Below are positions 7,180-54,365 of a stretch of DNA of 64,000 nucleotides, piece after piece. Positions within the stretch are counted from its first letter, which is position 1. Each line of letters opens with the position of its first letter. The notes under the pieces are model-generated. The model searched no databases. It saw only the letters and a program-made list of their open reading frames with translations, and was not told the origin of the DNA. Location: the NCBI RefSeq assembly GCF_903915725.1, contig NZ_CAIWTY010000073.1, positions 62,001 to 126,000 on the forward strand. The letters are read 5' to 3'. Source of the DNA: an uncultured Rhodopila sp. Its GTDB lineage: Bacteria; Pseudomonadota; Alphaproteobacteria; Acetobacterales; Acetobacteraceae. A program made the position numbers and the translations under genes.

Positions 7180-10100
7180 TCACGCACGGCCCGTATGACG
7201 GCGTCCGGCGGCGCAAGGATCGTATTGGCGGCAGAAGGCCTCCGCTCCCAGGCGGTGAACCTCTTCAAAAGCATCGAGGCAAAGCGCCGGTGCGTCCGTC
7301 CGGGAGCGGTGGCTGAAGCTGGCCAGCACATGCTTGTAGGCCGCGCGGTCAAGCCCGTATGCGTCGGCGATCACGGCATCGATTTGCGCCCGCAACAGCA
7401 GCGGCGGCCTGGAATCGGTACGCTCGCCGCCAATCTGCTCGCGCCACAGCTGGTCGTAGCCGGCATGCGTGCAGGACAGGCGCAACGCCGCGCGCGCCAG
7501 GAACCGGCGCTGCGCCGCCTGCAACAGCGGCATCGGCAGCGCCTCCAGTATATACAAACTGAGATGCGTCGCCGCCTTCTGCCGCACCAGCCAGTCGAAC
7601 GCAAACGCATTGAACACCGCGCACAGCACCAGGGCATCGGCGGCGCCCCGCGCGCCGGGAGCTTTCTCCACCGTCGCGGTGTGGCCGAACACGCTGCCGG
7701 GCGGCGCGATGCAGGCGATCATCGTGCGTTCATTGGTCGCCTGCGCGATGTCGCGGAACACCAGGCGGTAATGCTGTGCCGCCTCGGCGATGGCGGCCCG
7801 GATCGATCCGCTCGCCACGCTGGAACGCGGCGCGGTGTCCCAAACATCGGTATACTGATGAAATGTTTTCCCTTCATGCAAAACCAGCTCGCCAATGCCC
7901 GGCGGCAGGAAGCAGCCGGCATCGCCGGTCATGTGCAGATCCCGGCCGAGGCGGATGCGATGCCGCGCACACCACGCACCGAAACGTTCCGGCTGCCCGA
8001 ACATTCGTTCCGCAATGGTCTGATCGGCTTTGCCGCGCAGTTCCAGCGGCGTCAGCGCGTCCCCGCCCGTCCCGGTCAGAAATTCCACATCATAGGTCAT
8101 GATCTTTTCCGCATCGGCCGCGTCGTCCATCCGCTCCAGATAGAAGCCGCAGCGGAACGATGCCGTCGGACCCGGCCGGTGCGCCACGATCAGATCGAAC
8201 TTGAACCGGCTGTCGATATCGAACACCCGGCGGCGGTTTTCGAACGACAGGCACCACGCCAGCGCCGCCTCCCGTAGATACAGACGCCTGACACCTGTTG
8301 TGCCCTCATTGGCGTGGAACGCGGATGGCATCAGCACGCCGATGGACCCGCCGCGGGCCGCCAGCTCAAGGTTGCGCTCCGCAAACAGACGGAACAGATC
8401 CAGGTTCCCGGCTGTCGAATCGGTGCCGGCGCTGACCCGCTGATGCCGGTACAGCCGATGCGCGATGGCCTTCAGACGATCGAAGCCGAGCCGGTAGGCT
8501 TCGAACGCGGCGGCGGCATCCGGCCGCGCCAGCACCGCCTGTTCGATCCGCGCACGTTCCGTCCGGCTGCGCGCCTCCAGCACCGATGGATCGTAGTTGG
8601 CGACGAAATCCTTGGTGTTGTGCTGCACCACGTCCCAGGGCGGGTTGCCCAGCACGGCGGCAAACCCCTCCGGGAACACTTCCGGAAACGCCAGCTCCCA
8701 GGTGATCGCGTCGCGTCCGGCCTCCAGCAAAGCCGCCTGCCGGGCGGTCGGACGCGATGGCCAGGCGCCGGTATCCGCGACATGCGCCGCCAGTGCCAGC
8801 CATTCGTCGTCGGCATCCCGGGCACGCAGCATGGCCGCGCCGGACCAGCCGCGGGCGAGCTGCCGCAGCGGATGCAGCACCGCGTCCAGCCGCGCCTTGG
8901 TGGCGGTTTTTGCCGTCAGATCTGCGATGTCCCGGCCGATGGTGGCGTCCATCTCCGCCACCAGAACCCGCACAACCGTCAGGCTGGCTTCCAGCCGCGC
9001 CGAAACGCCGCGGGCCAGCAATGGATCGAGCGGCCCGCCGGTCACCGGCAACGTCGATAAGGACCCGAAGAACGGCCCCGTCAGCGCATCGCCATGCACC
9101 AGCCGGTGATCGAGGAATGTCAGCGGCAGGCCCTCGGCATAGGACTCCAGCCAAAGCGACACCCTGGCCAGCTCCACCGCCAGTTCGTTCCGGTCGACGC
9201 CATACAGGCAATGCACCGCCACCAGCCTGCGGCAGATCGCCCGGGCGCGGGCTTCGGCATAGCCCCGGCTCGGCAGGTACGCGGCCACGCTGGCGTCCGG
9301 ATCGGGCAACGCGGCGATGCGGTCATGCAGCCCGCGCTCGTCGCACGATCGGCAGGCGGCCAGCAGCGCCTCGCCGAGATGGCGGCAGGCCTCGACCAGG
9401 AAATGCCCGCTGCCCATCGCCGGATCGACGATCTTCAGGCGCAGAAGTGCGGCGGGGTGCGGATTCTCCGGCGGCGACAGCGCGGCGATCTTCGCATCCA
9501 GCGTCTCGCGCACCAGGAAGCGCACGAATTCATGCGGCGTGTAGAACGAACCGCTCGCCTTGCGCCCCGGCCCGACGCGTAGGAAGAACCGCCCGGCCCG
9601 GATGCCGCCGTCCCCCGCCGCCACCACCGTCTCGCGCTTGCCGCGGCGCAGCCGGACCATCGGCTCGGTTGCGATCGACGGCTCCTGCTCCAGCAGCGCC
9701 TCATAGACCCGGCCGAGGTCTTCGACGTCCAGCGATCCGTAATGCACGCGCACCCGTTCGCCATCCGGCGACCGGGTCCAGATCAGGCGGTCGAGCATGA
9801 TCGCCACGGCTTGGTCACCCCAGGACAGGCGGTCGAGTAGCGGCGTCGCCGCCGCCCCGAACAGCGCGCCGCCCAGCGGGGCGATCTGCAACTCGGAACA
9901 GGACAGCCCGTCCCGGAAAGCGGCGAACAGCAGCCGCAAGCCGCTTTCCAGCATCGTCCCGGTGTCGTGCCCGTGGTCGAGATGGCGGCGCACCAGGGGC
10001 GCGAGCGCGTGGTTCGGCGACAGCGCCAGCCGCCACAGCCTTGTGGAGGCGAAGCTGAAGCCGGTTTCGCCGGGGCTTTCCAGCTTCAGAATGAACAGCA

Positions 10101-10815
10101 GCCGGTAGACCAGCACCAGCCCTTCGCGCCACAGCTCCGCCGCGCTGAAAACGCTGTTGTCGCCGACGCGATCGAGCACCGCGTTGATGAAGCCGACAAT
10201 GGCGTCGCGCGCCTGGCCGCGCAGCGCCGCGGTGACTTTCGTCTGGTGCAGCCGCGCCGACTCCAGCGCCGCCGGCAGGCGCGGCAGGGCGTTGGCGCCG
10301 GCCAGCGCCAGCAGCACTCGCCAGGAGTCCGGCGGCAGCGGACGGTCCCGCCACGACCCCAGGGGAATGGACAGGAAACTGTCCGCCCGCGCCGGATCGC
10401 ACAATAGCAGGCGCAGCATGTCGCCGTTGGCCAGCAGGCCCGCCCGCTCGCCGCGCGCCAGCAGCACCCGTTGCGCCACCCGGGTCGGGCTACCCCGATA
10501 GGATTTTCCCACCGCATCCAGATCGGTTGCTACCGCCCACGCGCGCAGCGCAGAACCGTTGGCGGCCTTCAGCAGCCAGCCGCCATCCTCCTGGCCATCC
10601 CGCGTGGTGACGCTGACCTGTCGCACCGGGCGCCCGTAGCCAAGGGCCGCCGCCAGCTTCCCCATCATCCGCTGCACGCCGCCGCCGAGCGCGTCCCGCA
10701 CGGACTCCCATCCGGAGTCGTTTGGAAGCGCCACCACCTCGGCCAGCCCGTCCCGCAGGAACGGCGCGGTGACCGCGGACCCCGACAGGATGCAGTCGTC
10801 GAGCTCGAGCATCAC
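7180..10815 (-). CDS. large class I N6-adenine DNA methyltransferase (DISARM DrmMI / Eco57I-like)
   Basis: Probable adenine DNA methyltransferase of 1211 residues. FYTPHEFVRFLV lies near residue 420, the SAM-binding motif I DPAMGSGHFLVEA near 465 and the catalytic NPPW motif IV (LGNPPWD) near 722, in the gamma-class order seen in Eco57I-type and BREX/DISARM enzymes. Long N- and C-terminal regions probably serve target recognition or partner binding. I see no clear PD-(D/E)xK nuclease motif. The start is GTG at 10815 or ATG at 10812, overlapping the upstream SNF2 helicase stop, so the two are coupled. The pair resembles DrmMI plus DrmD of class 1 DISARM without the other DISARM genes. Target sequence and restriction activity are unknown. 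Confidence 0.85.
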   Translation of the reverse strand: MMLELDDCILSGSAVTAPFLRDGLAEVVALPNDSGWESVRDALGGGVQRMMGKLAAALGYGRPVRQVSVTTRDGQEDGGWLLKAANGSALRAWAVATDLDAVGKSYRGSPTRVAQRVLLARGERAGLLANGDMLRLLLCDPARADSFLSIPLGSWRDRPLPPDSWRVLLALAGANALPRLPAALESARLHQTKVTAALRGQARDAIVGFINAVLDRVGDNSVFSAAELWREGLVLVYRLLFILKLESPGETGFSFASTRLWRLALSPNHALAPLVRRHLDHGHDTGTMLESGLRLLFAAFRDGLSCSELQIAPLGGALFGAAATPLLDRLSWGDQAVAIMLDRLIWTRSPDGERVRVHYGSLDVEDLGRVYEALLEQEPSIATEPMVRLRRGKRETVVAAGDGGIRAGRFFLRVGPGRKASGSFYTPHEFVRFLVRETLDAKIAALSPPENPHPAALLRLKIVDPAMGSGHFLVEACRHLGEALLAACRSCDERGLHDRIAALPDPDASVAAYLPSRGYAEARARAICRRLVAVHCLYGVDRNELAVELARVSLWLESYAEGLPLTFLDHRLVHGDALTGPFFGSLSTLPVTGGPLDPLLARGVSARLEASLTVVRVLVAEMDATIGRDIADLTAKTATKARLDAVLHPLRQLARGWSGAAMLRARDADDEWLALAAHVADTGAWPSRPTARQAALLEAGRDAITWELAFPEVFPEGFAAVLGNPPWDVVQHNTKDFVANYDPSVLEARSRTERARIEQAVLARPDAAAAFEAYRLGFDRLKAIAHRLYRHQRVSAGTDSTAGNLDLFRLFAERNLELAARGGSIGVLMPSAFHANEGTTGVRRLYLREAALAWCLSFENRRRVFDIDSRFKFDLIVAHRPGPTASFRCGFYLERMDDAADAEKIMTYDVEFLTGTGGDALTPLELRGKADQTIAERMFGQPERFGAWCARHRIRLGRDLHMTGDAGCFLPPGIGELVLHEGKTFHQYTDVWDTAPRSSVASGSIRAAIAEAAQHYRLVFRDIAQATNERTMIACIAPPGSVFGHTATVEKAPGARGAADALVLCAVFNAFAFDWLVRQKAATHLSLYILEALPMPLLQAAQRRFLARAALRLSCTHAGYDQLWREQIGGERTDSRPPLLLRAQIDAVIADAYGLDRAAYKHVLASFSHRSRTDAPALCLDAFEEVHRLGAEAFCRQYDPCAAGRRHTGRA

Positions 10816-13754
10816 GCCGGAGGCACCAGCATCAACAGGCCGAGCGTCCGGACCGCTGGTTTCGCCAGTGGCGGCGGTTCCGGGGCGATCGAACGCAGGG
10901 TTTCAGCCGCCTGGCGCCGTTGCGCGACCGGCACGGAAGCATCGGCTGCGAACGCCGCGAGGCGCTCCGCGGCCGGCGCCGGGGACCGCCAGTCTTTCGC
11001 CCCCGGTCCATCGTCAAACAGGTCGCGCGGCCTGGCGACGGGTGCCCCGCACAGTTCGTTGACCCGCTGTACCAGCCAGGCGTCCAAGGTGGCGCGTTGG
11101 CGCTTCAGCCTGGCTTCGTGCCGGGTGGAGAAGCCGATCGCGATCTCGTCCGCGACCGCCGCTGCGCGAGAGGCGGCGGCTTCGATCGCCGGTGGTGCCC
11201 AGGACGCAAACCGCGCCTGCCACGCTCCATCCGGCGATACCGCATTCCCCGCCAGCGCCAGGAAATCCGGCTGCTGCTGCACTGTCCCATCCGGAAATAC
11301 CTGAAGCGCGAATACCTGGCGCAGCAGCGTGCCCGAACGGCCGCCAATCTCCGCGGCATAGGTGATCAGCAGCGACAGCGCATCGCCGCGCGCCACACCC
11401 ACCCGGCCCGTTTGCCCGCCGCGCGCCAGGGCAATGGCGCGCCGTGTCAGCGGATGGGCGCGGCCCGGATAGAGCAGGGTCCGCCCGCGCTCGTCCCGGC
11501 TGCGCGCCGGATCGTCCGTCAGGTGCACAACGCCACGCTCGGGATCGTAACCTGGCAGCCCGTCGAGATCGGCCGTCCATGCCGCGGGAATGCGATAGCC
11601 GTCCGGGACAGCGGTCAGGACGGACGCGACGAAAGCCGCCAGGTCGATCCCTGCCGCCTGGTCCGCCGCCGGCGGATCGACTGGTGGTCCGCTCCCCATC
11701 CAGCCATGCCGGACCGCCATATGATCAAAACTTTGAAACGCCCGGTCGATCTCCCGCAGCAGGTCGCGAAAGGCCTCGCTGTCGCCGTCCTCGGCGGCAA
11801 GGTCGAGCGAGTGGACCAGGCGCGGCATGGCGCTGAACAGATCCTCCGCAAAGCCCGCCATCAGCGGTTCGGAGAGGCGCGCCGGTTCGGCCGTCACCGC
11901 CAGGGTGTTGGGCATGAACGACAGGCAGGACCGCGCCTTCTCGTATTTCGCGATCAGCCGCAGCAGCAGGCGTTCCTCGAACGTGCCGGCGAGATAGAGA
12001 TAGCGGATTTCCGGGTCGTGGCGCTGGCCGTAGCGGTCGATGCGGCCGTTGCGCTGCTCCAGACGGTTCGGGTTGTACGGCAGGTCGAGATGGATCAGGT
12101 GGTGACAGCGCTGATGCAGGTTCAGCCCTTCCGCCAGCGAGTCCGTGCTGACCAGCACGATCCCGTCCTCCTCCGCGCAGCGTTCCGCCGCCCGTTGCCG
12201 ATGGGCTTCGGAGTCGGCGCCGCTGATGGTGAGGACGGAGCTGCCGAGGACGCGCAAGGCGTTCACCGCGGCGCGCTGGCTGTCGGCGTATTCCGTATAG
12301 ACGAGGATATTGGCGTCCTTGTGCTGCAGCCGGATCAGCTTCACCTCCAGCACCAGCGCCGCCAGTTTGGGATCGTCCGGTTCCGCCGCTTCGCCGAGGC
12401 GGATCAGCGCGTGCAAGGCGGAGATCGTTTCCGCGCCGGACAGGCCGGCGGCCATCTCCTCCGCCTCCAGCGCGGCGATATCGGCTTCCTCGGCCGGGTC
12501 GAGCACGCCGAATTTCTGTGCGCGGCGGCGGTAGGCACGCAGGGCGCGCTGCCGCTCGCGGCGGGACGCAGCCGTATCGGCATCGGCATAGCGGTCGGCG
12601 ACCACGCGCAACGTGGCGACACAGGCGGCGATGCTCGACATGGAGCGCTTCAGCAGACTGACGAAGGCCAGCGCATCCGCCAGCCCGTTGCGGTCGCGCG
12701 AGCGGCGCAGCCGCGGCGCCACCAGCGCGGACAGGGCCTTGTGGAACGCCTGCACGGCGGGCGCATCGGTTACGTCCACCCGCACCGGCACCACCACCCG
12801 CTCCCGAAACAGCGGCGCCCCGGTGCTCGGGTCGCGGATATGCGACTTCAGGCGGCGCACGACATGGCTGCGATACGTGGTCGCGAGCAACCGCCCGGAC
12901 CCGTCCACCAGGCTCGGGTCGAGCAGCGCGATCAACGAGGCGAAATGCGGATCGTGCCCGTCATGCGGGGTAGCGGTCAGCAGCAGCAGCCCGTCGCCGC
13001 GGCGGGCAAGCACTTCGGCCAACAGCCGGCGCTGGCTGTCCTCGCCCGGCCCGGCGCCGCTGACGCAGTGGTGCGCCTCGTCGATAATGACCAAATCCCA
13101 CGACGCGCGCTCGAGCTCCGCCAGCACACGGTCCGATTTCGCAAAGTCCATCGAGGTCAGGCACAGCGCCGTCGCGTCGAACGGGTTGCCGCCGAGTTCC
13201 AGCCCGCGCCGCGCCTCGCGCAGGCTGGCGCTGTCGGTGATCGGGGTGAACCGCAGGCCGAAGCGGAGCCGCATCTCCTGCTCCCACTGGCGCAGCAGCG
13301 GGCCGGGCGGGCAAACCACGAGGATGCGGTGGGCGCGGCGGCGGACGATGAGCTCGGCAGCGATCAGCCCGGCCTGGATGGTCTTGCCCAGGCCGACGCC
13401 GTCGGCCAGCAGCAGCCGCGGGCGCACCATCTCCAGCGCACGCAGCAGCGGCACGCGCTGATACGCCTCGATCGCGACCCGGCCGGGAGGTGCGGGCGCG
13501 CCGGGGATCTGGTCCAGCAGCCAGGCGGTGTGATAGCGGCGCCAGTCGTCCAGCGGTCCGGCATCTTCCGGGCGGGGATCGGTTTGCAGGACGGTCACCG
13601 TTTCGGCCGGCACCAGCACGTCCCATTCCAGGCCCTGCATGTCGCCGGCCGCACAGGCCAGCCGAACGCGCTGTAGCGGCCCGAGCGGCTCGACCTCCGT
13701 CACATCCCATTCCAGGCCGCGTGCGGCGACCTTGATCCCAACCGAGATTTCCAT
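10812..13754 (-). CDS. SNF2-family helicase (DISARM DrmD-like)
   Basis: Superfamily 2 SNF2/RapA-type ATPase of 980 residues. The Walker A is in LADGVGLGKTIQAGLIAAEL (about residues 112-131), the DEAH box is VIIDEAHHCVSG (near 220) and motif III is LLTATPHDGHD (near 257). The second RecA domain holds VSTDSLAEGLNLHQ (near 537) and motif VI QRNGRIDRYGQRHD (near 568). It probably translocates on DNA. I chose the ATG at 13754 (MEISVGIKV); the frame extends 9 residues further upstream. Its stop overlaps the methyltransferase start, making a two-gene operon. DrmD-like assignment rests on architecture and partner; a stand-alone helicase-methylase defence system is the alternative. Confidence 0.87.
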   Translation of the reverse strand: MEISVGIKVAARGLEWDVTEVEPLGPLQRVRLACAAGDMQGLEWDVLVPAETVTVLQTDPRPEDAGPLDDWRRYHTAWLLDQIPGAPAPPGRVAIEAYQRVPLLRALEMVRPRLLLADGVGLGKTIQAGLIAAELIVRRRAHRILVVCPPGPLLRQWEQEMRLRFGLRFTPITDSASLREARRGLELGGNPFDATALCLTSMDFAKSDRVLAELERASWDLVIIDEAHHCVSGAGPGEDSQRRLLAEVLARRGDGLLLLTATPHDGHDPHFASLIALLDPSLVDGSGRLLATTYRSHVVRRLKSHIRDPSTGAPLFRERVVVPVRVDVTDAPAVQAFHKALSALVAPRLRRSRDRNGLADALAFVSLLKRSMSSIAACVATLRVVADRYADADTAASRRERQRALRAYRRRAQKFGVLDPAEEADIAALEAEEMAAGLSGAETISALHALIRLGEAAEPDDPKLAALVLEVKLIRLQHKDANILVYTEYADSQRAAVNALRVLGSSVLTISGADSEAHRQRAAERCAEEDGIVLVSTDSLAEGLNLHQRCHHLIHLDLPYNPNRLEQRNGRIDRYGQRHDPEIRYLYLAGTFEERLLLRLIAKYEKARSCLSFMPNTLAVTAEPARLSEPLMAGFAEDLFSAMPRLVHSLDLAAEDGDSEAFRDLLREIDRAFQSFDHMAVRHGWMGSGPPVDPPAADQAAGIDLAAFVASVLTAVPDGYRIPAAWTADLDGLPGYDPERGVVHLTDDPARSRDERGRTLLYPGRAHPLTRRAIALARGGQTGRVGVARGDALSLLITYAAEIGGRSGTLLRQVFALQVFPDGTVQQQPDFLALAGNAVSPDGAWQARFASWAPPAIEAAASRAAAVADEIAIGFSTRHEARLKRQRATLDAWLVQRVNELCGAPVARPRDLFDDGPGAKDWRSPAPAAERLAAFAADASVPVAQRRQAAETLRSIAPEPPPLAKPAVRTLGLLMLVPPA

Positions 13755-24316: not shown

Positions 24317-24577
24317 ATGCAACTTGGTAAATACGTCAAGTTCCGCGAGGAACGGTTCGGCGGGGTTCTGTTCGAAACCCGGACGGAGAAGGTCTACACC
24401 CTGAACCCCACGGCTGCGGCCGTGATCAAGGAGCTCGGCGCGGGCTGCGATGTCGCGCAGCTCACGCAGCGCCTGGCGGATCGCTTCCAGGCCCCGGCCG
24501 GCTCGATCGAGCAGGACATCGCCGCGCTGATTGGCGATTTGCGCGAAAAGGGCCTGGTGGAAGACACCGCCGCATGA
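24317..24577 (+). CDS. PqqD-like RiPP recognition element protein
   Basis: 86-residue winged-helix RRE protein of the PqqD family, which binds the leader of a ribosomal peptide and presents it to radical SAM enzymes. The family pattern is clear: a beta hairpin start (KYVKFREERFGGVLFETRTE), KVYTLNPTAAAVIKELGAGC, where PqqD proteins have xLNxTAxxVLxLxxG, then LADRFQAPAGSIEQDIAALI and an acidic C-terminal helix. It opens the operon. Its stop overlaps the first radical SAM start by ATGA. No other PQQ genes are present, so it is not the PQQ pathway itself. Confidence 0.9.
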   Translation: MQLGKYVKFREERFGGVLFETRTEKVYTLNPTAAAVIKELGAGCDVAQLTQRLADRFQAPAGSIEQDIAALIGDLREKGLVEDTAA

Positions 24578-25578
24578 CCCAGATCACCGGCCTGACGCCG
24601 CTGCCCGACAGCCTGATCCCGAAGACAACCCCGGCCATGACCACCTCCGGCACCTTGCGGGCGCCGCTGTACGTGGCGTGGCAGGTGACCAACGAATGCA
24701 ACCTGGCCTGCCTGCATTGCATCGAGGAAAGCGGCCCCGGCAAGGCGTTCAAGGACGAATTATCTAAGGAGCAGACCTTCGAGGTGCTGCGCCAGATCGT
24801 CGACAACGACGTGCCGTACCTGTCGCTGTCCGGCGGCGAGCCGATGCTGCATCCGCATTTCTTTGAAATGCTCGAATACGCCTGCAACCGCGGCACCCAG
24901 GTCAAGGTCGAGACCAACGGGCACTATCTGTCGCCGGAAAACTGCGCCCGGCTGAAGGATCTGGCGGTCAAGGCTGTGCAGGTCAGCCTGGACGGCGCGA
25001 CCGCCGCGACGTTTGGCAAGATGCGGGTGCGCGGCAGTTTCGATCAGGTCATGGAAGGGCTGCGCAACCTGCATGCGGCCGGCGTGCCGATAGAGATCAA
25101 TCATTCGCCGACGGGCTTCAACGTGCACGAGATCGCCGCGATGGTCGATCTTTGCGCGGATGCGGGCGCCGAAAGCTTCTACACCGGGCGCACGATGTAC
25201 ACCGGGAATGCGGTCAAGACCTGGGCGAAGCTGAACGCGACCGACGACCAGTACGAGGCGTTTTTCGATACGCTGCGCGAAAAGGCCGTGCAGTACGACG
25301 GCCGCATGCGGGTGCATTTCCACGAGATGGGCCTGCTGGATGAGCTGCGCTATCGCCTGCACCACCCCGCCGCGCTGCTGATCGTCCTGCCGAACGGGCT
25401 GGTCAAGCTGATCAACGCGCTGCCGTTCGTCTGCGGCGACCTGCGCACGCAGACTCTGGCCGAGGTGTGGGGCAACTTCCAGCACGCCTGGCAAGATCCG
25501 CGGGTGGCGGCTTTCGTCGATGCGCTGGAACAGGATCCGGAGAAAACCTCGTTGTTGCATCAATGGATCAACGTCTAG
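24574..25578 (+). CDS. radical SAM peptide-modifying enzyme 1, degenerate SPASM region
   Basis: 334 residues. The 4Fe-4S cluster ligands are Cys42, Cys46 and Cys49 in CNLACLHC. The SAM-binding GGEP is at 87-90 and SLDGA near residue 141. The C-terminal region keeps the SPASM-like framework (LIVLPNGLVKLINALPFVCG, then LAEVWGNFQHAW) but only one Cys, so auxiliary iron-sulphur clusters are probably absent. Coupled to the PqqD-like protein (ATGA) and overlapping the prenyltransferase by 16 bases. Two paralogues sit in the same operon beside a 48-residue peptide gene, so the substrate is most likely that peptide. An internal ATG at residue 22 is an alternative start. Confidence 0.9.
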   Translation: MTQITGLTPLPDSLIPKTTPAMTTSGTLRAPLYVAWQVTNECNLACLHCIEESGPGKAFKDELSKEQTFEVLRQIVDNDVPYLSLSGGEPMLHPHFFEMLEYACNRGTQVKVETNGHYLSPENCARLKDLAVKAVQVSLDGATAATFGKMRVRGSFDQVMEGLRNLHAAGVPIEINHSPTGFNVHEIAAMVDLCADAGAESFYTGRTMYTGNAVKTWAKLNATDDQYEAFFDTLREKAVQYDGRMRVHFHEMGLLDELRYRLHHPAALLIVLPNGLVKLINALPFVCGDLRTQTLAEVWGNFQHAWQDPRVAAFVDALEQDPEKTSLLHQWINV

Positions 25579-26483
25579 CCCCGCCGCACGCGCGGCCGCT
25601 GCATCGGCTGCTGCGTGTGCTGAGCCTGGTCCGCTACCGGTTCTTCCTCTATGCGGGCCTGTTGCCCTATCTGCTCGGTGCCGCCTGGGCCTACCGGATC
25701 AACGGCACGATCGATGCCTCGGTGTTCTGGGGCGGACTGTTCGGCGTGGTGTTGGCGGTGGTCGGCGTCGAAGCGTTCAACGAGTATTTCGATTCGCGGA
25801 TGGGCACCGACCGGGTGTTCAACCCGGATGACCTGCCGCCGATGTCGGACGCGATCCTGTGGCTCGGCATCGCCGGGTTTGCGGGCGCGCTGGCGATCGG
25901 CATTTACCTGACCCTGCTGGCCGGGTGGCCGATACTGCTGTTCGCCGTGCTCGGCGGCCTGGCGGCAGTGTTCTATGTCGCCCCGCCGATACGCTGGGCC
26001 TATCGCGGCCTGGGCGAAACGGTCATCGCTTTGTCGTACGGACCGTGGATGGTGCTCGGCAGCCTGTATCTGCATGCACATGTGGTGGCATGGGGCGCGT
26101 TCTGGGCGTCGCTGGTGCCGGGCTGCCTCATCATGGCGCTGGCTGTCGTCAACGCCATCCCGGACTTCCATCAGGATCGGCTTGTCGGCAAGCGCAACCT
26201 TGTCGTACGGCTGGGCCGCAGGCGGGCGGTCTGGCTGTATCTCGGGCTCGCTTCCGCGGCGTTGCTGATTACGCTGGTCGGGGTCGCGGAGCGGGTGTTT
26301 CCGCCGCTATGCCTCGCCACGCTGCTGGCGCTGCCGCTGCTGATTTCGAGCGCGCGCCGGGCCATCGGCACTTACGAAACGCCCCGCCTGTTCGTGCCGG
26401 CGATCCGCAGCATCGTCTCCTGCTATGCGGTTGCGGTGGCTCTTTTCACCGCGGGCGTCGCGATCGACGCCTGGCTGCGATGA
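25563..26483 (+). CDS. MenA/UbiA-type membrane prenyltransferase
   Basis: 306 residues and about eight to nine membrane segments. It transfers an isoprenoid chain from a polyprenyl diphosphate to an aromatic acceptor. The first Asp-rich motif is NEYFDSRMGTD (residues 73-83), very like the MenA-type NxYxDxxxGTD, and the second is NAIPDFHQDRLVGKRNLVVR, with the family's GKR(T/N)L. ATG 25563 lies inside the end of radical SAM 1, and the stop overlaps radical SAM 2 by ATGA, so it belongs to the RiPP operon. No other ubiquinone or menaquinone gene is nearby. An integral UbiA-family enzyme in a PqqD/radical SAM operon is unusual and suggests a prenylated product. Confidence 0.9.
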   Translation: MDQRLAPPHARPLHRLLRVLSLVRYRFFLYAGLLPYLLGAAWAYRINGTIDASVFWGGLFGVVLAVVGVEAFNEYFDSRMGTDRVFNPDDLPPMSDAILWLGIAGFAGALAIGIYLTLLAGWPILLFAVLGGLAAVFYVAPPIRWAYRGLGETVIALSYGPWMVLGSLYLHAHVVAWGAFWASLVPGCLIMALAVVNAIPDFHQDRLVGKRNLVVRLGRRRAVWLYLGLASAALLITLVGVAERVFPPLCLATLLALPLLISSARRAIGTYETPRLFVPAIRSIVSCYAVAVALFTAGVAIDAWLR

Positions 26484-27442
26484 ACTGGATCGACTCGCTC
26501 GGGGCGCCGCTGTTCGTCTCCTGGCAGTTGACCCGCGATTGCGACCTGGCCTGCCTGCATTGCTGCACCGATTCCGCCCCCGGCAAGCGGGTGGCGGATG
26601 AACTGGATGCGGACGAGGCGATGGCGCTGGCCGCTGACATCGTCCGAACCGGGGTGCCCTATGTCATGCTGTGCGGCGGCGAACCGCTGATCGTCCCGCA
26701 TTTCTTCGACGTCGCGGAATACCTCGGGCGATCCGGCGTGATGCTGAAGATCGAGACCAACGGCCAGCGCTTCGGCGCGGCCGAGGCGGAACGTCTGGCC
26801 CGGCTGCCGATACGCTCGATCCAGATCAGCCTGGATGGCGACTCGCAAGATATCTACGGGCGGCAGCGTCCCGGCGCCTCGCTGGCGAAGACGCATGCCG
26901 CCTGCCGCTCCGTGCGCGACGCCGGCCTGCCGCTGGAGGTCACCTTCGCCCCGACGCGGATGAACATCCATGAGGCCGAGGCGGTGATCGAACGCGCCCG
27001 CGGCTTCGGCGCGTTCCGCTTCAACACCGGCCAGTTGATGCGCATCGGCCGCGCCGCCCGGCTTTGGCACCGGATCGCGCCGTCCGCCGAGGACTACCAA
27101 AGGTTTCGCGAGACCCTGGCGCGGCAGCAGCGTGTCATTGACGATACAATGCAGTTTTGCCATGATCCCTTTGCAATCGAAGGAGGATTGCAAAATAGCC
27201 TGGACGCTCCGCCGGCAACGATGCTGGTGCTGCCGAACGGTTGGGTTAAAGTCGCCGCGGCGATTGGTCATGTCTGCGCCGACATGCGCCGCATGACGCT
27301 GACGGAGGCGTGGGACAGTTATCGTGCCGCATGGCGCAACGAAACGGTCATCGCCGCGATCCATCGCGGCATCGAACGGGACGTGCATCACGCGGACGCC
27401 AATATCTGGCGATCAATCTCGGATGGAGTACCAGTTCTATGA
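26480..27442 (+). CDS. radical SAM peptide-modifying enzyme 2
   Basis: 320 residues, paralogous to the flanking radical SAM enzymes. Cluster ligands Cys21, Cys25, Cys28 (CDLACLHC), GGEP at 66-69, SLDGD near residue 117. The C-terminal SPASM-like framework (MLVLPNGWVKVAAAIGHVCA, then LTEAWDSYRAAW) again has a single Cys. ATG 26480 is chosen because it overlaps the prenyltransferase stop and aligns with the paralogues; the open frame extends far upstream as a shadow. Its own stop overlaps the peptide gene by ATGA, so enzyme and presumed substrate are co-translated. It lacks features of the futalosine enzymes MqnC/MqnE. Confidence 0.9.
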   Translation: MNWIDSLGAPLFVSWQLTRDCDLACLHCCTDSAPGKRVADELDADEAMALAADIVRTGVPYVMLCGGEPLIVPHFFDVAEYLGRSGVMLKIETNGQRFGAAEAERLARLPIRSIQISLDGDSQDIYGRQRPGASLAKTHAACRSVRDAGLPLEVTFAPTRMNIHEAEAVIERARGFGAFRFNTGQLMRIGRAARLWHRIAPSAEDYQRFRETLARQQRVIDDTMQFCHDPFAIEGGLQNSLDAPPATMLVLPNGWVKVAAAIGHVCADMRRMTLTEAWDSYRAAWRNETVIAAIHRGIERDVHHADANIWRSISDGVPVL

Positions 27443-27585
27443 GTGACTCGGTCATCGAAACAACCAAGGCTGCCGAAACCGCGCACGCCAAGAAGCAAAA
27501 GAGCGACCTGCCGTTTTGGGAGACCCCGAAGCTTGAGGACGTCTCCGAGCAGGTGATGGCGCAGCCCTACATCCGCTTCACCTGA
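27439..27585 (+). CDS. putative PqqA-like RiPP precursor peptide, 48 aa
   Basis: The peptide has a polar leader (SDSVIETTKAAETAHAKKQK) and a C-terminal part reading FWETPKLEDVSEQ then VMAQPYIRFT. The W-x-x-P-x-L spacing resembles leader motifs read by PqqD-type RREs in PqqA and lasso precursors. Aligned on Trp27/Pro30, Tyr44 falls where PqqA has its cofactor-forming Tyr, but the partner Glu is Met40. There is no Cys, and one Tyr, two Phe and one Trp are the aromatic candidates. ATG 27439 overlaps radical SAM 2, and the stop is 17 bases before radical SAM 3. Precursor status is inferred from context and pattern; modification sites are unknown. Confidence 0.8.
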   Translation: MSDSVIETTKAAETAHAKKQKSDLPFWETPKLEDVSEQVMAQPYIRFT

Positions 27586-27602
27586 GCGGGTCGGCTACCG
27601 CG

Positions 27603-28562
27603 ATGAGCGGGCGATCGCTTGACGAATACGGGTCCCCGCTCTTTCTCGCCTGGCAGTTGACCAACCGGTGTGAAGCCAACTGCCTCGCGTGCTGCGAGGA
27701 GTCGGGGCCGGACAAGGGCTGGGCGAACGAACTGGGGCGCGACGAGGCGTTGCGGGTCACCGATGAGGCTATCGCCCTCGGTATTCCCTACGTGGCGTTC
27801 GGCGGCGGGGAGCCGTTGGGCGTGTCGTTCTGCTGGGATATTTTTGAGCGTTTGGCTGCGGCCGGCGTTTCCATCAAGCTCGAAACCAACGGCCGCCATA
27901 TCGACGATGCCGCGGCGGATCGTCTGGTCGCGCTGAACGTGCAGTGCATCCAGATCTCGGTGGACGGCGCGACCGCCGACACCCACGAACGGGCCCGCCC
28001 CGGCAGCAGCTTCTCCGCCGCCATGGCCGCCATCGATCGTCTGGTGGCGCGCGGGTCCGCGCCGCAAATGGTGTTTTCCCCGACGCGCGCCAACATCCGC
28101 GATATCGTTCCGGCTTATGAGTTGGCGAAGCAGCACGGCTGCAGCGCGTTCGTGACGGGACCACTGATGCGGCTCGGGCGGGCGGCGTTGGCCTGGGACT
28201 CCCTGGCTTGCAACGAGGCGGTGTGGGACGACGCGGCGATGGCGCTGCGGGCGCGTGCCGTGGCGCTGGGTGGCGGCCTGATGCTGTCGATCTACCCGTG
28301 GGACATCGTGACAGAGCTGGAGCGGCGGATCGAGAGCCCTCAGGCGATGCTGCTGGTAGTGCCCAACGGACGGGTGAAGTTGTTGAATGCTCTGCCGTTT
28401 TCGCCGGCGGATCTGCGGCTTGTGTCGCTGGCGGAGGCGTGGGAGGCTTACCGGCGTGCGTGGCGCACCGCGGAGGTGCGGGATTTCATCGCCCGCTGCC
28501 GAAGCGAACCGGACTTGCTTCGGCACGCGAACGAGACCTGGTATCTGCGGGAAGCGGCCTAG
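27603..28562 (+). CDS. radical SAM peptide-modifying enzyme 3
   Basis: 319 residues, third paralogue of the operon. Cluster ligands Cys23, Cys27 and Cys30 (CEANCLAC), with GGEP at 68-71 and SVDGA near residue 120. The phrase CCEESGPDKG after the cluster motif matches ESGPGK and DSAPGK in the other two. The C-terminal SPASM-like framework (LLVVPNGRVKLLNALPF, then LAEAWEAYRRAW) has lost even the single Cys kept by its paralogues, so no auxiliary cluster is expected there. It follows the peptide gene by 17 bp and precedes the Coq10-like gene by 30 bp, completing the cluster. Confidence 0.9.
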   Translation: MSGRSLDEYGSPLFLAWQLTNRCEANCLACCEESGPDKGWANELGRDEALRVTDEAIALGIPYVAFGGGEPLGVSFCWDIFERLAAAGVSIKLETNGRHIDDAAADRLVALNVQCIQISVDGATADTHERARPGSSFSAAMAAIDRLVARGSAPQMVFSPTRANIRDIVPAYELAKQHGCSAFVTGPLMRLGRAALAWDSLACNEAVWDDAAMALRARAVALGGGLMLSIYPWDIVTELERRIESPQAMLLVVPNGRVKLLNALPFSPADLRLVSLAEAWEAYRRAWRTAEVRDFIARCRSEPDLLRHANETWYLREAA

Positions 28563-28592
28563 CGCGCACGGCCCGCGCGATGCGGAGACGCC

Positions 28593-29084
28593 ATGCCGAC
28601 GTATTTCGCGCATGCAGATCTGCCCTATGCACCGCAACAGGTGTTCGATCTTGTCGCGGATATAGAAAGCTACCCGAAATTTCTGCACCATGTCGCCGCC
28701 GCCCGGATCCGCCGCCGGAACGGCAATATGCTGTGGGTCGATCAGGTCGTGCGCTTCGCGATGCTGCGGCTGCATTTCAGCACGCGCGCGGTGCTGGAGC
28801 CTCCGTCCCGCATTCATGTCGTTTGCAATGACAGTCTGTTCGGGACGTTCGACGAGACCTGGAGTTTTGCCGACGCCCCATCGGGTGGCACGCGGCTGGA
28901 ATGTCATGCGACCTACGAGTTGCGTTCGGGCCTGATCCGGATGGTGCTGGGTCCTGCCCTGTCGGATCTGCTGGGCACATCCGTGAAAGCGTTCCAGGCC
29001 AGGGCCCGGCAGATCTACGGCAGCGCTGCGTCCGTAAGCAGTGAGCCGGGGCAGGTCGGGGTCACATCATCGCAATCACCTTGA
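28593..29084 (+). CDS. Coq10/RatA-like START-domain lipid-binding protein
   Basis: 163 residues. The pattern (ADLPYAPQQVFDLVADIESY, PKFLHHVAAARIRRR, LHFSTRAVLEPPSRIHV, GTFDETWSFAD) is that of the polyketide-cyclase/START proteins of the Coq10 group, which bind ubiquinone-like isoprenoid quinones in a hydrophobic cavity. Annotation pipelines often name such proteins RatA toxin; I see no support for toxicity. It is 30 bp after radical SAM 3 with a good GGAG site, so probably the last gene of the operon. A quinone-binding helper beside a MenA-like prenyltransferase supports a lipophilic quinone-like product. It could instead be the cell's ordinary Coq10. Confidence 0.8.
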   Translation: MPTYFAHADLPYAPQQVFDLVADIESYPKFLHHVAAARIRRRNGNMLWVDQVVRFAMLRLHFSTRAVLEPPSRIHVVCNDSLFGTFDETWSFADAPSGGTRLECHATYELRSGLIRMVLGPALSDLLGTSVKAFQARARQIYGSAASVSSEPGQVGVTSSQSP

Positions 29085-29115: not shown

Positions 29116-29379
29116 ATGGACACAACCCGGCTCTCATCGAAAGGCCAGATCATCCTGCCCAAGACGGTGCGGGATATGCATGGCTGGACGCCCGGCACCG
29201 ATTTTACCGTCGAAGACACCGGGGACGGCGTGCTGCTGCGGCCGATAAAGGCCCGGCCCGCGCGGCTGGAGGATATTGTTGGCTGCCTGCCGGTCGAGGG
29301 TAGCGCGCGCAGCATTGAGGAAATGGACTCCGTCATCGCGGCCGAACTGCGGGATCGGCGTGATCGCGGCCGATACTAA
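29116..29379 (+). CDS. AbrB/SpoVT-family antitoxin
   Basis: 87-residue swapped-hairpin DNA-binding protein, antitoxin and autorepressor of the adjacent PIN toxin. MDTTRLSSKGQIILPKTVRD is the classical AbrB-type start (SKGQxxLPxxxR), followed by TDFTVEDTGDGVLLRPI. The C-terminal tail (SIEEMDSVIAAELRDRRDRG) is the likely toxin-wrapping segment. Start ATG 29116 follows the promoter-like AT-richer gap after the Coq10-like gene. The stop lies inside the toxin start region with a 20-base overlap. Confidence 0.9.
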   Translation: MDTTRLSSKGQIILPKTVRDMHGWTPGTDFTVEDTGDGVLLRPIKARPARLEDIVGCLPVEGSARSIEEMDSVIAAELRDRRDRGRY

Positions 29380-29746
29380 TGTCATTGTCCGGTTGCTGAC
29401 GGCCGATGAACCGCGGCAGACCGCGCGCGCCCGCAGCTTGTTCGAAACCGAGACGGTGTTCTTGCCGAAGACCGTCATCCTCGAAGCCGAGTGGGTGCTG
29501 CGCCGCCTCTATCGCCTGGAGCGCCTGCCGGTAAACCGCGCTCTGGAAGCGCTGCTGTCGCTGCCGAATGTGCGGTGCGAGGATGAACCGCTCGTCCGCC
29601 AGGCCCTGGTGTGGAATCGCGAGAACCTCGACTTCGCGGATGCGCTGCATCTGGCATCCAGCCCCTCGGTCGAGCGCTTCGTGACGTTCGATCTCGCTCT
29701 GATCAAGGGCGCCACCTCGGCGGGACTGGCTGTCACCGAACCCTGA
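29360..29746 (+). CDS. VapC-type PIN-domain toxin ribonuclease
   Basis: 128-residue PIN-domain endoribonuclease, expected to cleave RNA when free of its antitoxin. The first catalytic Asp is in VIAADTNVIVRLLTADEPRQ. The second acidic position is in ILEAEWVLRRLYRL, and the C-terminal pair in NLDFADALHLASSPSVERFVTFD. GTG 29360 is chosen because it overlaps the antitoxin frame by 20 bases and starts directly before the beta strand. Unlike the interrupted PIN gene at 14.7-15.1 kb, this copy is complete. The pair separates the RiPP operon from the Rieske gene and may be a recent insertion. Confidence 0.88.
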   Translation: MIAADTNVIVRLLTADEPRQTARARSLFETETVFLPKTVILEAEWVLRRLYRLERLPVNRALEALLSLPNVRCEDEPLVRQALVWNRENLDFADALHLASSPSVERFVTFDLALIKGATSAGLAVTEP

Positions 29747-50188: not shown

Positions 50189-50962
50189 ATGACCGCCGTT
50201 CTGTTCGAGGTCGTGCAGCCGCACATCGCGCTGGTCACCATCAACCGTCCGGAAGCACGCAACGCCATCAATGGTGAGGTCGCCGCCGGCCTCGAAGCCG
50301 CGGTGGAGCGACTGGAAGCCGATCCGGAGCTTTGGGTGGCGGTGTTGACCGGGGCAGGGGCGCAGGCTTTCTGTGCCGGTGCCGATTTGAAAGAGGTTTC
50401 CGCCGGCCGGGTTGCAGGCCTGTCCACGCAGAAAGGCGGTTTCGCCGGATTCGTCCGCGCCAAGCGAAGCAAATTGTGGATCGCCGCGGCACAGGGCCAC
50501 GCGCTGGCCGGCGGGCTGGAGCTTCTGCTGTCCTGCGACCTCGCAGTCGTGGCCGAAACGGCAACGTTCGGCGTGCCGGAGGTCAAGCGCAGCCTGCTCG
50601 CCGGCGCCGGCGGCGTGTTCCGCCTGCCGCGCGCCGTGCCCAAGGCGATAGCACTGGAAATGATCACCACCGGCGATGCGATTTCCGCCGCGCGCGCTGC
50701 GCAGTTCGGGCTGGTCAACGCAGTCGTGCCGGCGGCGGACGTCGTTTCGGCGGCGCTGGCTTTGGCCGCCCGCGTGACCGTCAACGCGCCGCTGGCCGTG
50801 CGGGAAAGCCTGGGTGTTGCCCGGCAGGCCTACGAACTCACCGAAGCCGAACTATGGAACGTCAGCGCCGCGGCCTTTGACCGCCTCGTTGCGACCGAGG
50901 ATTTCCACGAAGGCCCCCGTGCCTTCGTGGAAAAGCGGCCGCCGAGCTGGGTCGGCCGTTAA
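50189..50962 (+). CDS. enoyl-CoA hydratase family protein
   Basis: 257-residue crotonase. LVTINRPEARNAINGEVAAG, GAGAQAFCAGADLKEVSAGR and GHALAGGLELLLSCDLAVVA form the CoA-binding and oxyanion-hole motifs. GVPEVKRSLLAGAGGVFRLP holds the active-site region but with Lys-Arg in place of the usual Ile-x-Leu-Gly, and one catalytic Glu may be missing. ATG 50189 was chosen over an upstream extension of 21 codons. Its stop overlaps the stop of the convergent nitroreductase-like gene. Confidence 0.87.
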   Translation: MTAVLFEVVQPHIALVTINRPEARNAINGEVAAGLEAAVERLEADPELWVAVLTGAGAQAFCAGADLKEVSAGRVAGLSTQKGGFAGFVRAKRSKLWIAAAQGHALAGGLELLLSCDLAVVAETATFGVPEVKRSLLAGAGGVFRLPRAVPKAIALEMITTGDAISAARAAQFGLVNAVVPAADVVSAALALAARVTVNAPLAVRESLGVARQAYELTEAELWNVSAAAFDRLVATEDFHEGPRAFVEKRPPSWVGR

Positions 50963-51513
50963 GCCAGCCAGCGGACGAAGCTGTCCGCATCGTCGGCCGC
51001 CGCCGGCGCCGGGACGGCTTTCGGGGTGCCCAGATAGAGAAATCCGACGATTTGATCCTCATCGCGTAGCCCAAGCTCGCGGTGCAGGCCGCGGTCGTAC
51101 ATGAACCAGCCCGACCGCCAGAGCCCGTTGAAGCCCTGCGCCTGCGCCGCCATCTGCATCGCCATCACGGCGCAGCCGGCCGCGAGTTGCTGTTCGAACA
51201 CCGGAACGAGATCGCTCGGTCGCGGCGTCGAAACAACAACGATAACCATCGGCGCCCGGCCGGGCATCCGGATCGACCGTTGCACGACATCGTCCGGCTT
51301 GCCGGCCGCGATCGCCGCGCGTTGCATGATCCCCCCGAGCTTCTGCAGTCCATCGCCCGTCGCAACGATGAACGCATAGGGGCGGAGCCGCTGATGATCC
51401 GGCACCCGCAAGGCCGCCTGGATGATCAGCTTCAGCGCCTCGCCCTCCGGCGCCGGCAGGCCAAGCGCCCCGCAGGACTGGCGTTGCAACAGGAACTGCA
51501 GATTATCTGACAT
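50959..51513 (-). CDS. nitroreductase-family flavoprotein (YdjA-like)
   Basis: 184-residue FMN-binding nitroreductase fold. It starts SDNLQFLLQRQSCGALGLPA, where most members have RRSxRxF, then ALRVPDHQRLRPYAFIVATG, similar to the YdjA P-x-H-x-x-x-x-P-W/Y-F motif. AAQAQGFNGLWRSGWFMYDR is typical of YdjA, and IVGFLYLGTP closes the fold. Last gene of the eight-gene metal-associated locus; its ATG overlaps the ABC ATPase stop by 11 bases. The role in that locus is unknown; reduction of an imported metal complex is a speculation. Confidence 0.85.
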   Translation of the reverse strand: MSDNLQFLLQRQSCGALGLPAPEGEALKLIIQAALRVPDHQRLRPYAFIVATGDGLQKLGGIMQRAAIAAGKPDDVVQRSIRMPGRAPMVIVVVSTPRPSDLVPVFEQQLAAGCAVMAMQMAAQAQGFNGLWRSGWFMYDRGLHRELGLRDEDQIVGFLYLGTPKAVPAPAAADDADSFVRWLA

Positions 51514-52501: not shown

Positions 52502-53193
52502 TGGCAGTCCTCGAAGCTCATTTTCCGCACGTTGCCGCGCTGATAAGTCTCGCCGATGGCGGTTTCGCCGACGCAATAGGAACACACCGCCGAGGGCATC
52601 GAGAAGCGCAGGTGGTGATGCTCCAGCGTATCGATCCGCGGCGCCGCATCGATACGGAACGCCAGGTCCATCGCGCCCTGCCCGGTAATGCCGTTGCACC
52701 AAACCACCGGCGCGCGCGGGTTGGCGAGGCGGACGTTGTAAGCGAAAACCTCGCGTTCCGCCTGGGATACGATATCACCCTTGGTGATTGCAACGACATC
52801 GGCGAGCCGGAGCATGGGGCCGATCTTCCGCGGCGTGTGGATGCCGGCGAGATTGTCAACGACGCAGATCGCCAGCACGCCCTTGATGTGCGGCGAGCAA
52901 CGATTGCACAGCCCGGCGGTCTCGATGATCAGCACGTCAAGCCCGTTGCCGTGTCCCCAGGCGACGCAGTCGTCGATATTGCTGACGAAGTAATGATCCG
53001 GACAAAGGCCGCCGGACAGGCCGACGCGGACCGGCAGCCCGAGCGCGGCATAGGCGGCATCGTCCGTGGTGGACAATGCGTCGAATTTCACCACCCCAAC
53101 ATGCGCCCCATCGTCGCGCAAGCGGGCCGCAACCTTGATGAAAAGCGACGTCTTGCCGACGGAAGGCGGACCCGCAACGGTTACCAGGCGCAT
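52498..53193 (-). CDS. Cys-rich SIMIBI-class GTPase (HypB/UreG/CobW-like)
   Basis: 231-residue P-loop protein: VAGPPSVGKTSLFIKVAARL at the N-terminus, a switch segment GVVKFDALSTTDDA, and the Walker B region VLIIETAGLCNRCSPHIKG, where the Cys-x-x-Cys sits next to the nucleotide, as in metal-chaperone GTPases. TKGDIV corresponds to the guanine-specificity motif (usually NKxD, here TKGD). The C-terminal part has a further Cys pair (VCSYC) and a final Cys. It probably binds a metal ion in the cytoplasm. Start overlaps the SBP-like gene stop and its stop overlaps the ABC ATPase start, both ATGA. Confidence 0.85.
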   Translation of the reverse strand: MRLVTVAGPPSVGKTSLFIKVAARLRDDGAHVGVVKFDALSTTDDAAYAALGLPVRVGLSGGLCPDHYFVSNIDDCVAWGHGNGLDVLIIETAGLCNRCSPHIKGVLAICVVDNLAGIHTPRKIGPMLRLADVVAITKGDIVSQAEREVFAYNVRLANPRAPVVWCNGITGQGAMDLAFRIDAAPRIDTLEHHHLRFSMPSAVCSYCVGETAIGETYQRGNVRKMSFEDCQ

Positions 53194-54206: not shown

Positions 54207-54365
54207 GGCTTTGTTCCCGAGGTTCTACTGAAACGGTGTTCAAGATTTGTGCCATTGGCGCAGGCCCGCCAGCGCTTGCTGAATGGAGAGTACGGAACGC
54301 ACGAAATCGAACGAATTACTCCCGAATGTCCCGACTCGTGCGATCCGGGGACGGCCGCACGCATG

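What the first reader, a model, noticed from the sequence alone, without database searches (positions are those of the whole stretch)
24317..29084. Seven-gene RiPP-like operon with three radical SAM enzymes and a MenA/UbiA-type prenyltransferase
Seen: PqqD-like RRE protein, radical SAM, integral prenyltransferase, radical SAM, 48-aa peptide, radical SAM and Coq10/START-like protein, all on one strand with four start/stop overlaps and gaps of 17 and 30 bp. Known: PqqD-type RREs deliver leaders to radical SAM enzymes (PQQ, mycofactocin); UbiA enzymes prenylate aromatic rings; Coq10 proteins bind isoprenoid quinones. Inferred: a ribosomal peptide is converted to a prenylated, membrane-soluble aromatic or quinone-like cofactor. 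I know of no characterised pathway with this gene set.
Basis: partly seen in the sequence, partly recalled or inferred. Interest (0 to 1): 0.95.

Follow-up and report, generated by a model that had tools for sequence, protein, structure and literature searches.

The report
Ribosomal peptide route to membrane quinone
A small gene set that always travels together seems to turn a tiny gene-encoded peptide into an oily electron carrier like vitamin K, and some respiring bacteria appear to have no other known way to make one.

Summary
The operon is real and as described. Its core is six genes, not seven: PqqD-type RRE, rSAM1, MenA-like UbiA, rSAM2, peptide, rSAM3. All 38 loci with all six genes (of 44 found, in Proteobacteria and Elusimicrobiota) keep this order. 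The Coq10-like gene was seen only in Rhodopila. The peptide ends in AQPYIRFT in 39 of 39 copies; those codons differ only at third positions. A polyprenyl diphosphate synthase-like gene precedes the cassette in 31 of 31 non-proteobacterial loci. Of 193 Elusimicrobiota genomes 17 hold the cassette: all 17 have NuoH, none futalosine genes or menD over cut-off. In 22 of 25 cassette genomes the cassette enzyme is the only MenA-type prenyltransferase found. Proteobacterial copies adjoin pufLMC, MtrB, NapC, hydrogenase or fumarate reductase genes. Best reading: a RiPP pathway to a prenylated quinone-type carrier, the respiratory quinone of some Elusimicrobiota. R. globiformis reportedly has menaquinone but no canonical MenA was found, so the product may be menaquinone or a mimic. 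No chemistry was tested; menD was not searched in Rhodopila.

The parts
24317..24577 (+). PqqD-type RiPP recognition element (86 aa)
   Evidence: Pfam PF05402 56 bits, cut-off 23.4; best NCBIfam hit the lasso PqqD chaperone model, below its cut-off; present in 44 of 44 loci
24574..25578 (+). radical SAM enzyme 1 (334 aa); CxxxCxxC at C42/C46/C49; SPASM-like C-terminal region without the SPASM cysteines
   Evidence: PF04055 2e-25; best NCBIfam AhbD and MftC models, far below cut-off; AlphaFold model mean pLDDT 81, nearest solved folds SkfB and PqqE; triad invariant in 35 of 35 aligned
25563..26483 (+). integral membrane UbiA-family prenyltransferase, MenA-like (306 aa), with both Asp-rich motifs
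   Evidence: PF01040 9e-23; MenA-type models down to 1e-31 but below cut-off; tree: cassette clade 99/96, sister to canonical MenA 98/95, with a long-branch warning
26480..27442 (+). radical SAM enzyme 2 (320 aa), CxxxCxxCC
   Evidence: PF04055 6e-20; best NCBIfam MftC 109.7 bits, cut-off 265; triad invariant in 35 of 35
27439..27585 (+). 48-aa precursor peptide
   Evidence: no known family; 39 of 39 homologues end AQPYIRFT; last 8 codons vary only at third positions
27517..27543 (+). likely RRE-binding motif W-x-x-P-x-L-E-D-V in the peptide
   Evidence: W-x2-P-x13-Y in 38 of 39; W/Y/LxxP is the recognition motif of groups of RREs that include PqqD (passage of PMC12710340)
27559..27582 (+). 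invariant C-terminal core AQPYIRFT; Tyr44 at 27568-27570
   Evidence: Tyr at W+17 as in a fetched PqqA, same register relative to the E/D-I/V pair as in a fetched MftA
27603..28562 (+). radical SAM enzyme 3 (319 aa), CxxxCxxCC
   Evidence: PF04055 2e-18; MftC model 110.2 bits, cut-off 265; triad invariant in 34 of 34
28593..29084 (+). Coq10/START-like protein, accessory seen only in some Rhodopila, perhaps a quinone-binding protein (inference)
   Evidence: PF03364 3e-25; found only beside the window cassette and in L035, L036/L032

Best explanation
The six-gene cassette is a RiPP pathway that makes an isoprenoid, quinone-type electron carrier of the membrane. Shown by sequence: the six genes form one mobile unit; the peptide is a true gene with an invariant core; the prenyltransferase is a divergent sister of MenA; cassette-bearing Elusimicrobiota have NuoH (and, in the one genome inspected, an aa3-type oxidase) but no known quinone pathway was found in them. 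Inferred: the RRE binds W-x-x-P-x-L-E-D-V and presents the core to three radical SAM enzymes; these rebuild the aromatic side chain of the invariant Tyr44 (less likely Phe47) into a phenolic or hydroquinone head group; it is cut free by a housekeeping protease or by radical C-C cleavage (no protease gene is in the unit); the MenA-like enzyme attaches a polyprenyl chain; the lipid is used as a pool or bound quinone. In cassette-bearing Elusimicrobiota it would be the respiratory quinone; in Proteobacteria, which also make ubiquinone, an additional and probably low-potential quinone.
For: Fixed gene order in 38 of 38 loci that hold all six genes. Peptide invariance with purely synonymous codon change. 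Polyprenyl diphosphate synthase-like gene just upstream in 31 of 31 non-proteobacterial loci, in none of 13 proteobacterial flanks held (9 of the 31 scanned, all match such models below cut-off). Elusimicrobiota, 193 genomes: cassette 17; NuoH at the preset E<=1e-60 in 80, including 17 of 17; PF02621 (futalosine) in 12, none with the cassette; menD over cut-off in 2, none with the cassette. Besides the cassette enzyme, no UbiA-family protein of MenA type was found in 12 of 13 cassette-bearing Elusimicrobiota and 10 of 12 cassette-bearing Proteobacteria examined. The complete genome G845 has COX1-3, CyoE and two complex I gene clusters. Neighbours: pufLMC 55 bp upstream and puhE downstream (L047), MtrB 46 bp upstream (L050), NapC/NirT with MtrB (L045), MtrB (L073), NiFe hydrogenase (L042), fumarate reductase (L040). 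R. globiformis: reported MK-9 (PMC12542754 passage) and menaquinone at QA of its reaction centre (PMC9640540 passage), while its UbiA-family proteins are CyoE, UbiA, BchG, a DPPR-synthase-like protein and the cassette enzyme.
Against: No chemistry; no protease or C-methyltransferase in the unit. The genome of L047 also has a canonical MenA over cut-off (L128). G839 (Elusimicrobiota) has a second MenA-like protein below cut-off, 33% identical to the window enzyme over part of its length; G829 (L040) has two MenA-like proteins below cut-off. Ten of the 17 cassette-bearing Elusimicrobiota have a weak hit to the menD model (best 78.7 bits, cut-off 244.2), which I read as other thiamine enzymes. 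Seventeen Elusimicrobiota genomes with NuoH at E<=1e-85 have neither cassette nor futalosine genes, so lack of a known quinone pathway does not by itself point to the cassette. The genomes are related to each other, so the tests (p 4e-13 and 0.0055) overstate independence, and 1e-85 was set after seeing the list. G057, a phototrophic same-genus relative, lacks the cassette. Quinone-site residues of complex I were only read by eye. ubiE/menG and the other ubi and men genes were not searched.
Confidence: 0.62

Rival explanations
1. The cassette makes a PQQ- or mycofactocin-like redox cofactor for particular enzymes; the prenyl tail only anchors it in the membrane, and the respiratory quinone of these Elusimicrobiota comes from some other unrecognised route.
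For: RRE, peptide and radical SAM logic is that of PQQ and mycofactocin; the Tyr sits in the same register as in PqqA and MftA. NuoH genomes with neither pathway exist, so another unknown quinone source is possible.
Against: The one recurrent same-strand neighbour that I identified in the flank clustering is the polyprenyl diphosphate synthase-like gene, not a dehydrogenase (most other clusters were not identified). Neighbours found in proteobacteria are quinone-linked modules. The prenyltransferase is MenA-like.
Confidence: 0.17
2. The UbiA enzyme is an ordinary MenA acting on DHNA from a Men pathway elsewhere, and the peptide with its radical SAM enzymes does something unrelated.
For: Sister of MenA in the tree; R. 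globiformis is reported to have menaquinone, and menD was not searched in Rhodopila.
Against: menD over cut-off in 0 of 17 and futalosine genes in 0 of 17 cassette-bearing Elusimicrobiota; the UbiA gene lies inside the RiPP unit in 38 of 38 loci; below every MenA cut-off.
Confidence: 0.09
3. The product is a prenylated signal peptide or antibiotic.
For: RiPP gene logic; peptide prenylation is known in other RiPPs (recalled).
Against: Core identical across two phyla, unlike diversifying antibiotics; no exporter or immunity gene in the six-gene unit (flanks were not searched for them); prenyltransferase of the quinone type.
Confidence: 0.07

Closest known systems
Pyrroloquinoline quinone (PQQ) pathway, PqqA/PqqD/PqqE
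   Same: PqqD-type RRE, short peptide with W-x-x-P and a Tyr 17 residues after the Trp (PqqA fetched), radical SAM enzyme with related fold
   Different: No Glu at W+13 (Met in 38, Thr in 1 of 39); three radical SAM enzymes without SPASM cysteines; no PqqB/PqqC in the unit; membrane prenyltransferase added
Mycofactocin pathway, MftA/MftB/MftC
   Same: Radical SAM enzymes score best or second best against the MftC model; MftA has the same spacing of E-I, Met and Tyr
   Different: All three reach only about half of the MftC cut-off or less; the core does not end in Val-Tyr; no MftD, MftE or MftF in the unit; a UbiA enzyme in place of a glycosyltransferase
Menaquinone pathways (Men and futalosine), MenA
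   Same: Cassette prenyltransferase is sister to MenA; menaquinone is reported in R. globiformis
   Different: Cassette-bearing Elusimicrobiota lack menD over cut-off and PF02621 genes; precursor is apparently a ribosomal peptide
Coq10/START lipid-binding proteins
   Same: Accessory gene of the window matches this family
   Different: Not conserved with the cassette

Membership tests
RiPP pathway with RRE | RRE domain (PF05402) next to a short precursor peptide | tested here: met
   56 bits against cut-off 23.4; peptide in 38 of 38 loci that reach it
RiPP pathway with RRE | recognition motif of PqqD-like RREs (W/Y/LxxP) in the leader | tested here: met
   W-x-x-P in 38 of 39; the exception is L-x-x-P (motif from a passage)
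RiPP pathway with RRE | the peptide is physically modified by the enzymes | not testable with these tools
   needs mass spectrometry
PQQ biosynthesis | Glu and Tyr pair in PqqA that is cross-linked (recalled) | tested here: not met
   Tyr present, Glu position is Met or Thr in 39 of 39
PQQ biosynthesis | PqqE-type radical SAM over the model cut-off | tested here: not met
   best 81.4 bits against 381.35
Mycofactocin biosynthesis | MftA C-terminal Val-Tyr core | tested here: not met
   39 of 39 end PYIRFT; the fetched MftA ends GVY
Mycofactocin biosynthesis | MftC over the model cut-off (265 bits) | tested here: not met
   136.0, 109.7 and 110.2 bits
SPASM/twitch radical SAM maturases | several C-terminal cysteines for auxiliary Fe-S clusters (recalled: seven in SPASM) | tested here: not met
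   last 110 residues: rSAM1 1-2 Cys in 41 of 41, rSAM2 mostly 2-3 (range 1-5), rSAM3 0-3; beyond the triad region, C-terminal Cys kept in at least 80% of rows: C287 in rSAM1, C227 and C266 in rSAM2, none in rSAM3
Radical SAM superfamily | CxxxCxxC cluster motif | tested here: met
   35 of 35, 35 of 35 and 34 of 34 aligned (L039, L055 and the frame-broken L069 left out, rSAM3 also without one short row)
MenA (DHNA prenyltransferase) | curated cut-off TIGR00751 102.15 bits | tested here: not met
   68.9 bits
UbiA superfamily | PF01040 over cut-off and two Asp-rich motifs | tested here: met
   81.4 bits; motifs in 38 of 38
Known menaquinone pathways in cassette-bearing Elusimicrobiota | menD or futalosine genes | tested here: not met
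   0 of 17 each, menD by its curated cut-off
Known menaquinone pathways in Rhodopila | menD and the other men genes | not tested
Isoprenoid quinone | redox-active prenylated quinone in the membrane | not testable with these tools
   needs lipid analysis

The most novel reading that the evidence does not exclude
The cassette is a third, ribosomal route to menaquinone itself: the naphthoquinone head group is carved out of a gene-encoded peptide by three radical SAM enzymes and prenylated by a MenA sister. This would explain why Rhodopila globiformis has menaquinone (also at QA of its reaction centre) without a canonical MenA or futalosine genes, why one copy lies between pufC and puhE, and how cassette-bearing Elusimicrobiota respire without a known quinone pathway.
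Probability: 0.22. Interest if true: 0.98.

Novelty: categorically new. Interest (0 to 1): 0.92.

Why it matters
Known isoprenoid quinones are made from small metabolites, and known ribosomal redox cofactors (PQQ, mycofactocin) are not lipoquinones (both recalled). A ribosomally encoded membrane quinone would join two fields and give a respiratory chain whose central carrier is written in a gene. It bears on an open question in print: a 2026 survey of 26,264 genomes reports many lineages without quinone pathways, says other quinones may await discovery, and infers an alternative menaquinone pathway from cyanobacteria such as Gloeobacter (PMC13386864; abstract, first part of Results, Discussion and passages seen). 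It is directly testable, because Rhodopila globiformis DSM 161, a named strain, carries the cassette (L034).

Tried and rejected
Rejected: chance assembly of genes; PQQ or mycofactocin membership; Coq10 gene as a core part; the idea that the cassette belongs to photosynthesis as such (PF00124 in only 7 of 26 genomes, one of them the cassette-less G057). Led nowhere: viral-contig scan (no match); plasmid search with rSAM3 (only a mycofactocin locus, used for MftA). Raw ORF clustering of flanks gave many antisense shadows, so a codon-usage caller of my own was used. In one search my script counted 36 of 38 in order, because the best hit for the incomplete rSAM3 of L039 and L055 was its paralogue, which takes the best hit per place, shows the order in all 38. 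For the same reason the rSAM2 and rSAM3 motif counts include paralogue hits in truncated loci, and I use. The genome scan used two exact peptide patterns, so 44 is a lower bound. Papers: searches are search listings; no listed title or abstract start describes this gene set. UbiA-family hits not scanned: a weak broken hit of G839 and a 62-position fragment of G825. The proteobacterial neighbours were not compared with random genomic positions.
Full report
1. The observation. Seven ORFs lie at the stated places on the + strand, with overlaps of 4, 16, 4 and 4 bp and gaps of 17 and 30 bp. Pfam confirms PqqD, three Radical_SAM proteins, UbiA and Polyketide_cyc over their cut-offs; the 48-aa peptide matches nothing. 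The window lies in a 6.7 Mb genome. G819 is a same-genus relative, and its cassette contig has the same length (47,579 bases) as the R. globiformis contig NZ_NHRY01000224.1, so the window is most likely a Rhodopila species (inference).

2. Distribution. Searches for single cassette genes found it in 2 of 299 genomes of the order, 1 of 385 of the class and 5 of 397 of the family, each count including the window's own genome. A pattern scan of the genome collection with the rSAM1 alignment gave 50 loci; 44 (L034-L077) are close relatives and six (L078-L083) are weak radical SAM matches that I dropped. In 38 of the 44 all six core genes are present, a few only in part, in the same order on one strand; the other six are cut by contig ends. 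The 38 are 6 from Rhodopila, Acidocella and Acidiphilium, 7 from other Pseudomonadota and 25 Elusimicrobia or unnamed bacterial MAGs. Loci L031, L032, L015 and L033 are the same genomes as L034, L036, L038 and L041. The flanks, read by eye, differ between the window, R. globiformis, Acidocella and Acidiphilium, so the six genes seem to move as a unit. The Coq10-like gene accompanies the cassette only in the window, L035 and L036.

3. The peptide. All 39 copies (38 loci and the window) end in AQPYIRFT; 38 of 39 fit W-x2-P-x13-Y-x4-end, the exception having L for W. Over the last eight codons no first or second codon position varies and all eight third positions do. The Elusimicrobiota enzymes are about 47-70% identical to those of the window, so such a core points to one fixed product, as for a cofactor. 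W/Y/LxxP is the recognition sequence of RRE groups that include PqqD (passage in PMC12710340). In a fetched PqqA the Tyr also lies at W+17, and in a fetched MftA the E-I, Met and Tyr have the spacing of D-V, M40 and Y44 here. So the Tyr stands where PQQ and mycofactocin take theirs; the PQQ Glu position is Met or Thr.

4. The enzymes. The three radical SAM proteins keep CxxxCxxC (35 of 35, 35 of 35, 34 of 34 aligned) but few C-terminal cysteines: one conserved in rSAM1, two in rSAM2, none in rSAM3, too few for the auxiliary clusters of PqqE or MftC (inference). The rSAM1 model (mean pLDDT 81, the first 28 residues and the cluster loop poor) is nearest to SkfB and PqqE. The UbiA protein has both Asp-rich motifs (38 of 38). 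In a 29-row tree the cassette proteins form one clade (99/96), sister to a canonical MenA (98/95), away from CyoE, UbiA and BchG; the tree warns of long branches, MenA's among them.

5. Prenyl donor. In all 31 non-proteobacterial loci a trans-polyprenyl diphosphate synthase-like gene lies just upstream (117-252 bp before the conserved part of pqqD; within a few bases of a longer pqqD ORF in L069, L064 and L055); none of the 13 proteobacterial loci has it in the flanks held, some of them short. Nine of the 31 were scanned; all match polyprenyl diphosphate synthase-type models, below curated cut-offs.

6. Elusimicrobiota. Of 193 genomes drawn from the phylum, 17 have the cassette. NuoH (PF00146, E<=1e-60) is in 80, including all 17; at 1e-85, a line drawn after seeing the list to set apart hydrogenase-type homologues, 43 including all 17. 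Futalosine genes (PF02621) are in 12, strongly and twice in 9, none with the cassette. menD over cut-off is in 2, none with the cassette; 139 others have weaker hits, ten cassette genomes among them (best 78.7 bits against 244.2), which look like other thiamine enzymes. Fisher tests give 4e-13 (cassette with NuoH at 1e-85) and 0.0055 (cassette against futalosine among those), but the genomes are kin. In 13 cassette-bearing genomes I listed all UbiA-family proteins. Those scanned besides the cassette enzyme are haem O synthase (11 over cut-off; one whole protein and two contig-end pieces below it), GGGP-type, phosphoribosyltransferase-type or unassigned; only G839 has a second MenA-like protein, below cut-off. 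Every known menaquinone or ubiquinone route needs a UbiA-family enzyme (recalled). G845, a complete chromosome, has COX1 (in two pieces), COX2, COX3, CyoE and two complex I gene clusters (Pfam for four subunits, NuoH, the rest by eye); NuoD keeps GPQHP and a following HG. Against: 17 genomes with NuoH at 1e-85 have neither cassette nor futalosine genes.

7. Proteobacterial neighbours. Of seven loci outside the Rhodopila, Acidocella and Acidiphilium group, six have a quinone-linked redox module within about 3.3 kb. L047: pufL, pufM, pufC ending 55 bp before pqqD, and puhE behind. L050: MtrB ending 46 bp before. L045: NapC/NirT, MtrB and a multihaem cytochrome. L073: MtrB. L042: NiFe hydrogenase. 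L040: fumarate reductase A and B. L039 is short. No comparison with random positions was made.

8. Link to menaquinone. R. globiformis is said to make MK-9, UQ-9 and rhodoquinones (passage in PMC12542754), and its reaction centre holds menaquinone at QA and ubiquinone at QB (passage in PMC9640540). Its five UbiA-family proteins are CyoE, UbiA, BchG, a DPPR-synthase-like protein and the cassette enzyme, and it has no PF02621 match. So the cassette enzyme is the only evident candidate for prenylating its menaquinone. menD was not searched there. Of 12 cassette-bearing proteobacterial genomes examined, 10 show no MenA-type protein besides the cassette enzyme; the genome of L047 has a canonical MenA over cut-off and that of L040 two MenA-like proteins below cut-off, which speaks against a simple rule.

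9. Verdict. Best supported: a mobile RiPP pathway to a prenylated quinone-type carrier, probably the respiratory quinone of some Elusimicrobiota and an extra low-potential quinone in Proteobacteria. Steps shown: genes, order, peptide conservation, co-occurrence. Steps inferred: RRE binding, radical chemistry on Tyr44, release, prenylation, redox use. The boldest open reading is a third route to menaquinone itself. My paper searches listed no paper that describes this system, in a library without most subscription journals and without bioRxiv as a library.

Noticed in passing
window 29116-29746: AbrB-type antitoxin and PIN-domain toxin-like pair directly behind the operon (recognised by eye, not scanned).
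   Followed up: no
window 50959-57153: Group of uncharacterised genes including a P-loop GTPase-like protein (52498-53193) beside a TonB-like protein and a TonB-dependent receptor-like protein; looks like a metal-uptake set (by eye).
   Followed up: no
window 7180-13754: Two very large overlapping ORFs of unknown kind (1211 and 980 aa) beside a gyrA-like gene (by eye).
   Followed up: no
Elusimicrobiota genomes: Seventeen genomes with NuoH at E<=1e-85 but neither the cassette nor futalosine genes: quinone source, if any, unknown.
   Followed up: no
L047 genome (G832): Cassette inside a photosynthesis cluster and a canonical MenA elsewhere in the same genome bin; two quinones or a mixed bin.
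   Followed up: partly
L076:11978-13621: About 1.6 kb of extra DNA between the peptide gene and rSAM3, unlike the other complete loci.
   Followed up: no
L040: Record is titled Bordetella parapertussis MAG; with ubiquinone-type and fumarate reductase genes around a rare cassette the label looks doubtful (impression, not tested).
   Followed up: no
L069:7057-7548 and L064:7068-7559: A conserved 164-aa protein, regulator-like by eye, precedes the polyprenyl diphosphate synthase in these two Elusimicrobiota loci; no Pfam match at E<=1e-5 for the L069 copy.
   Followed up: partly
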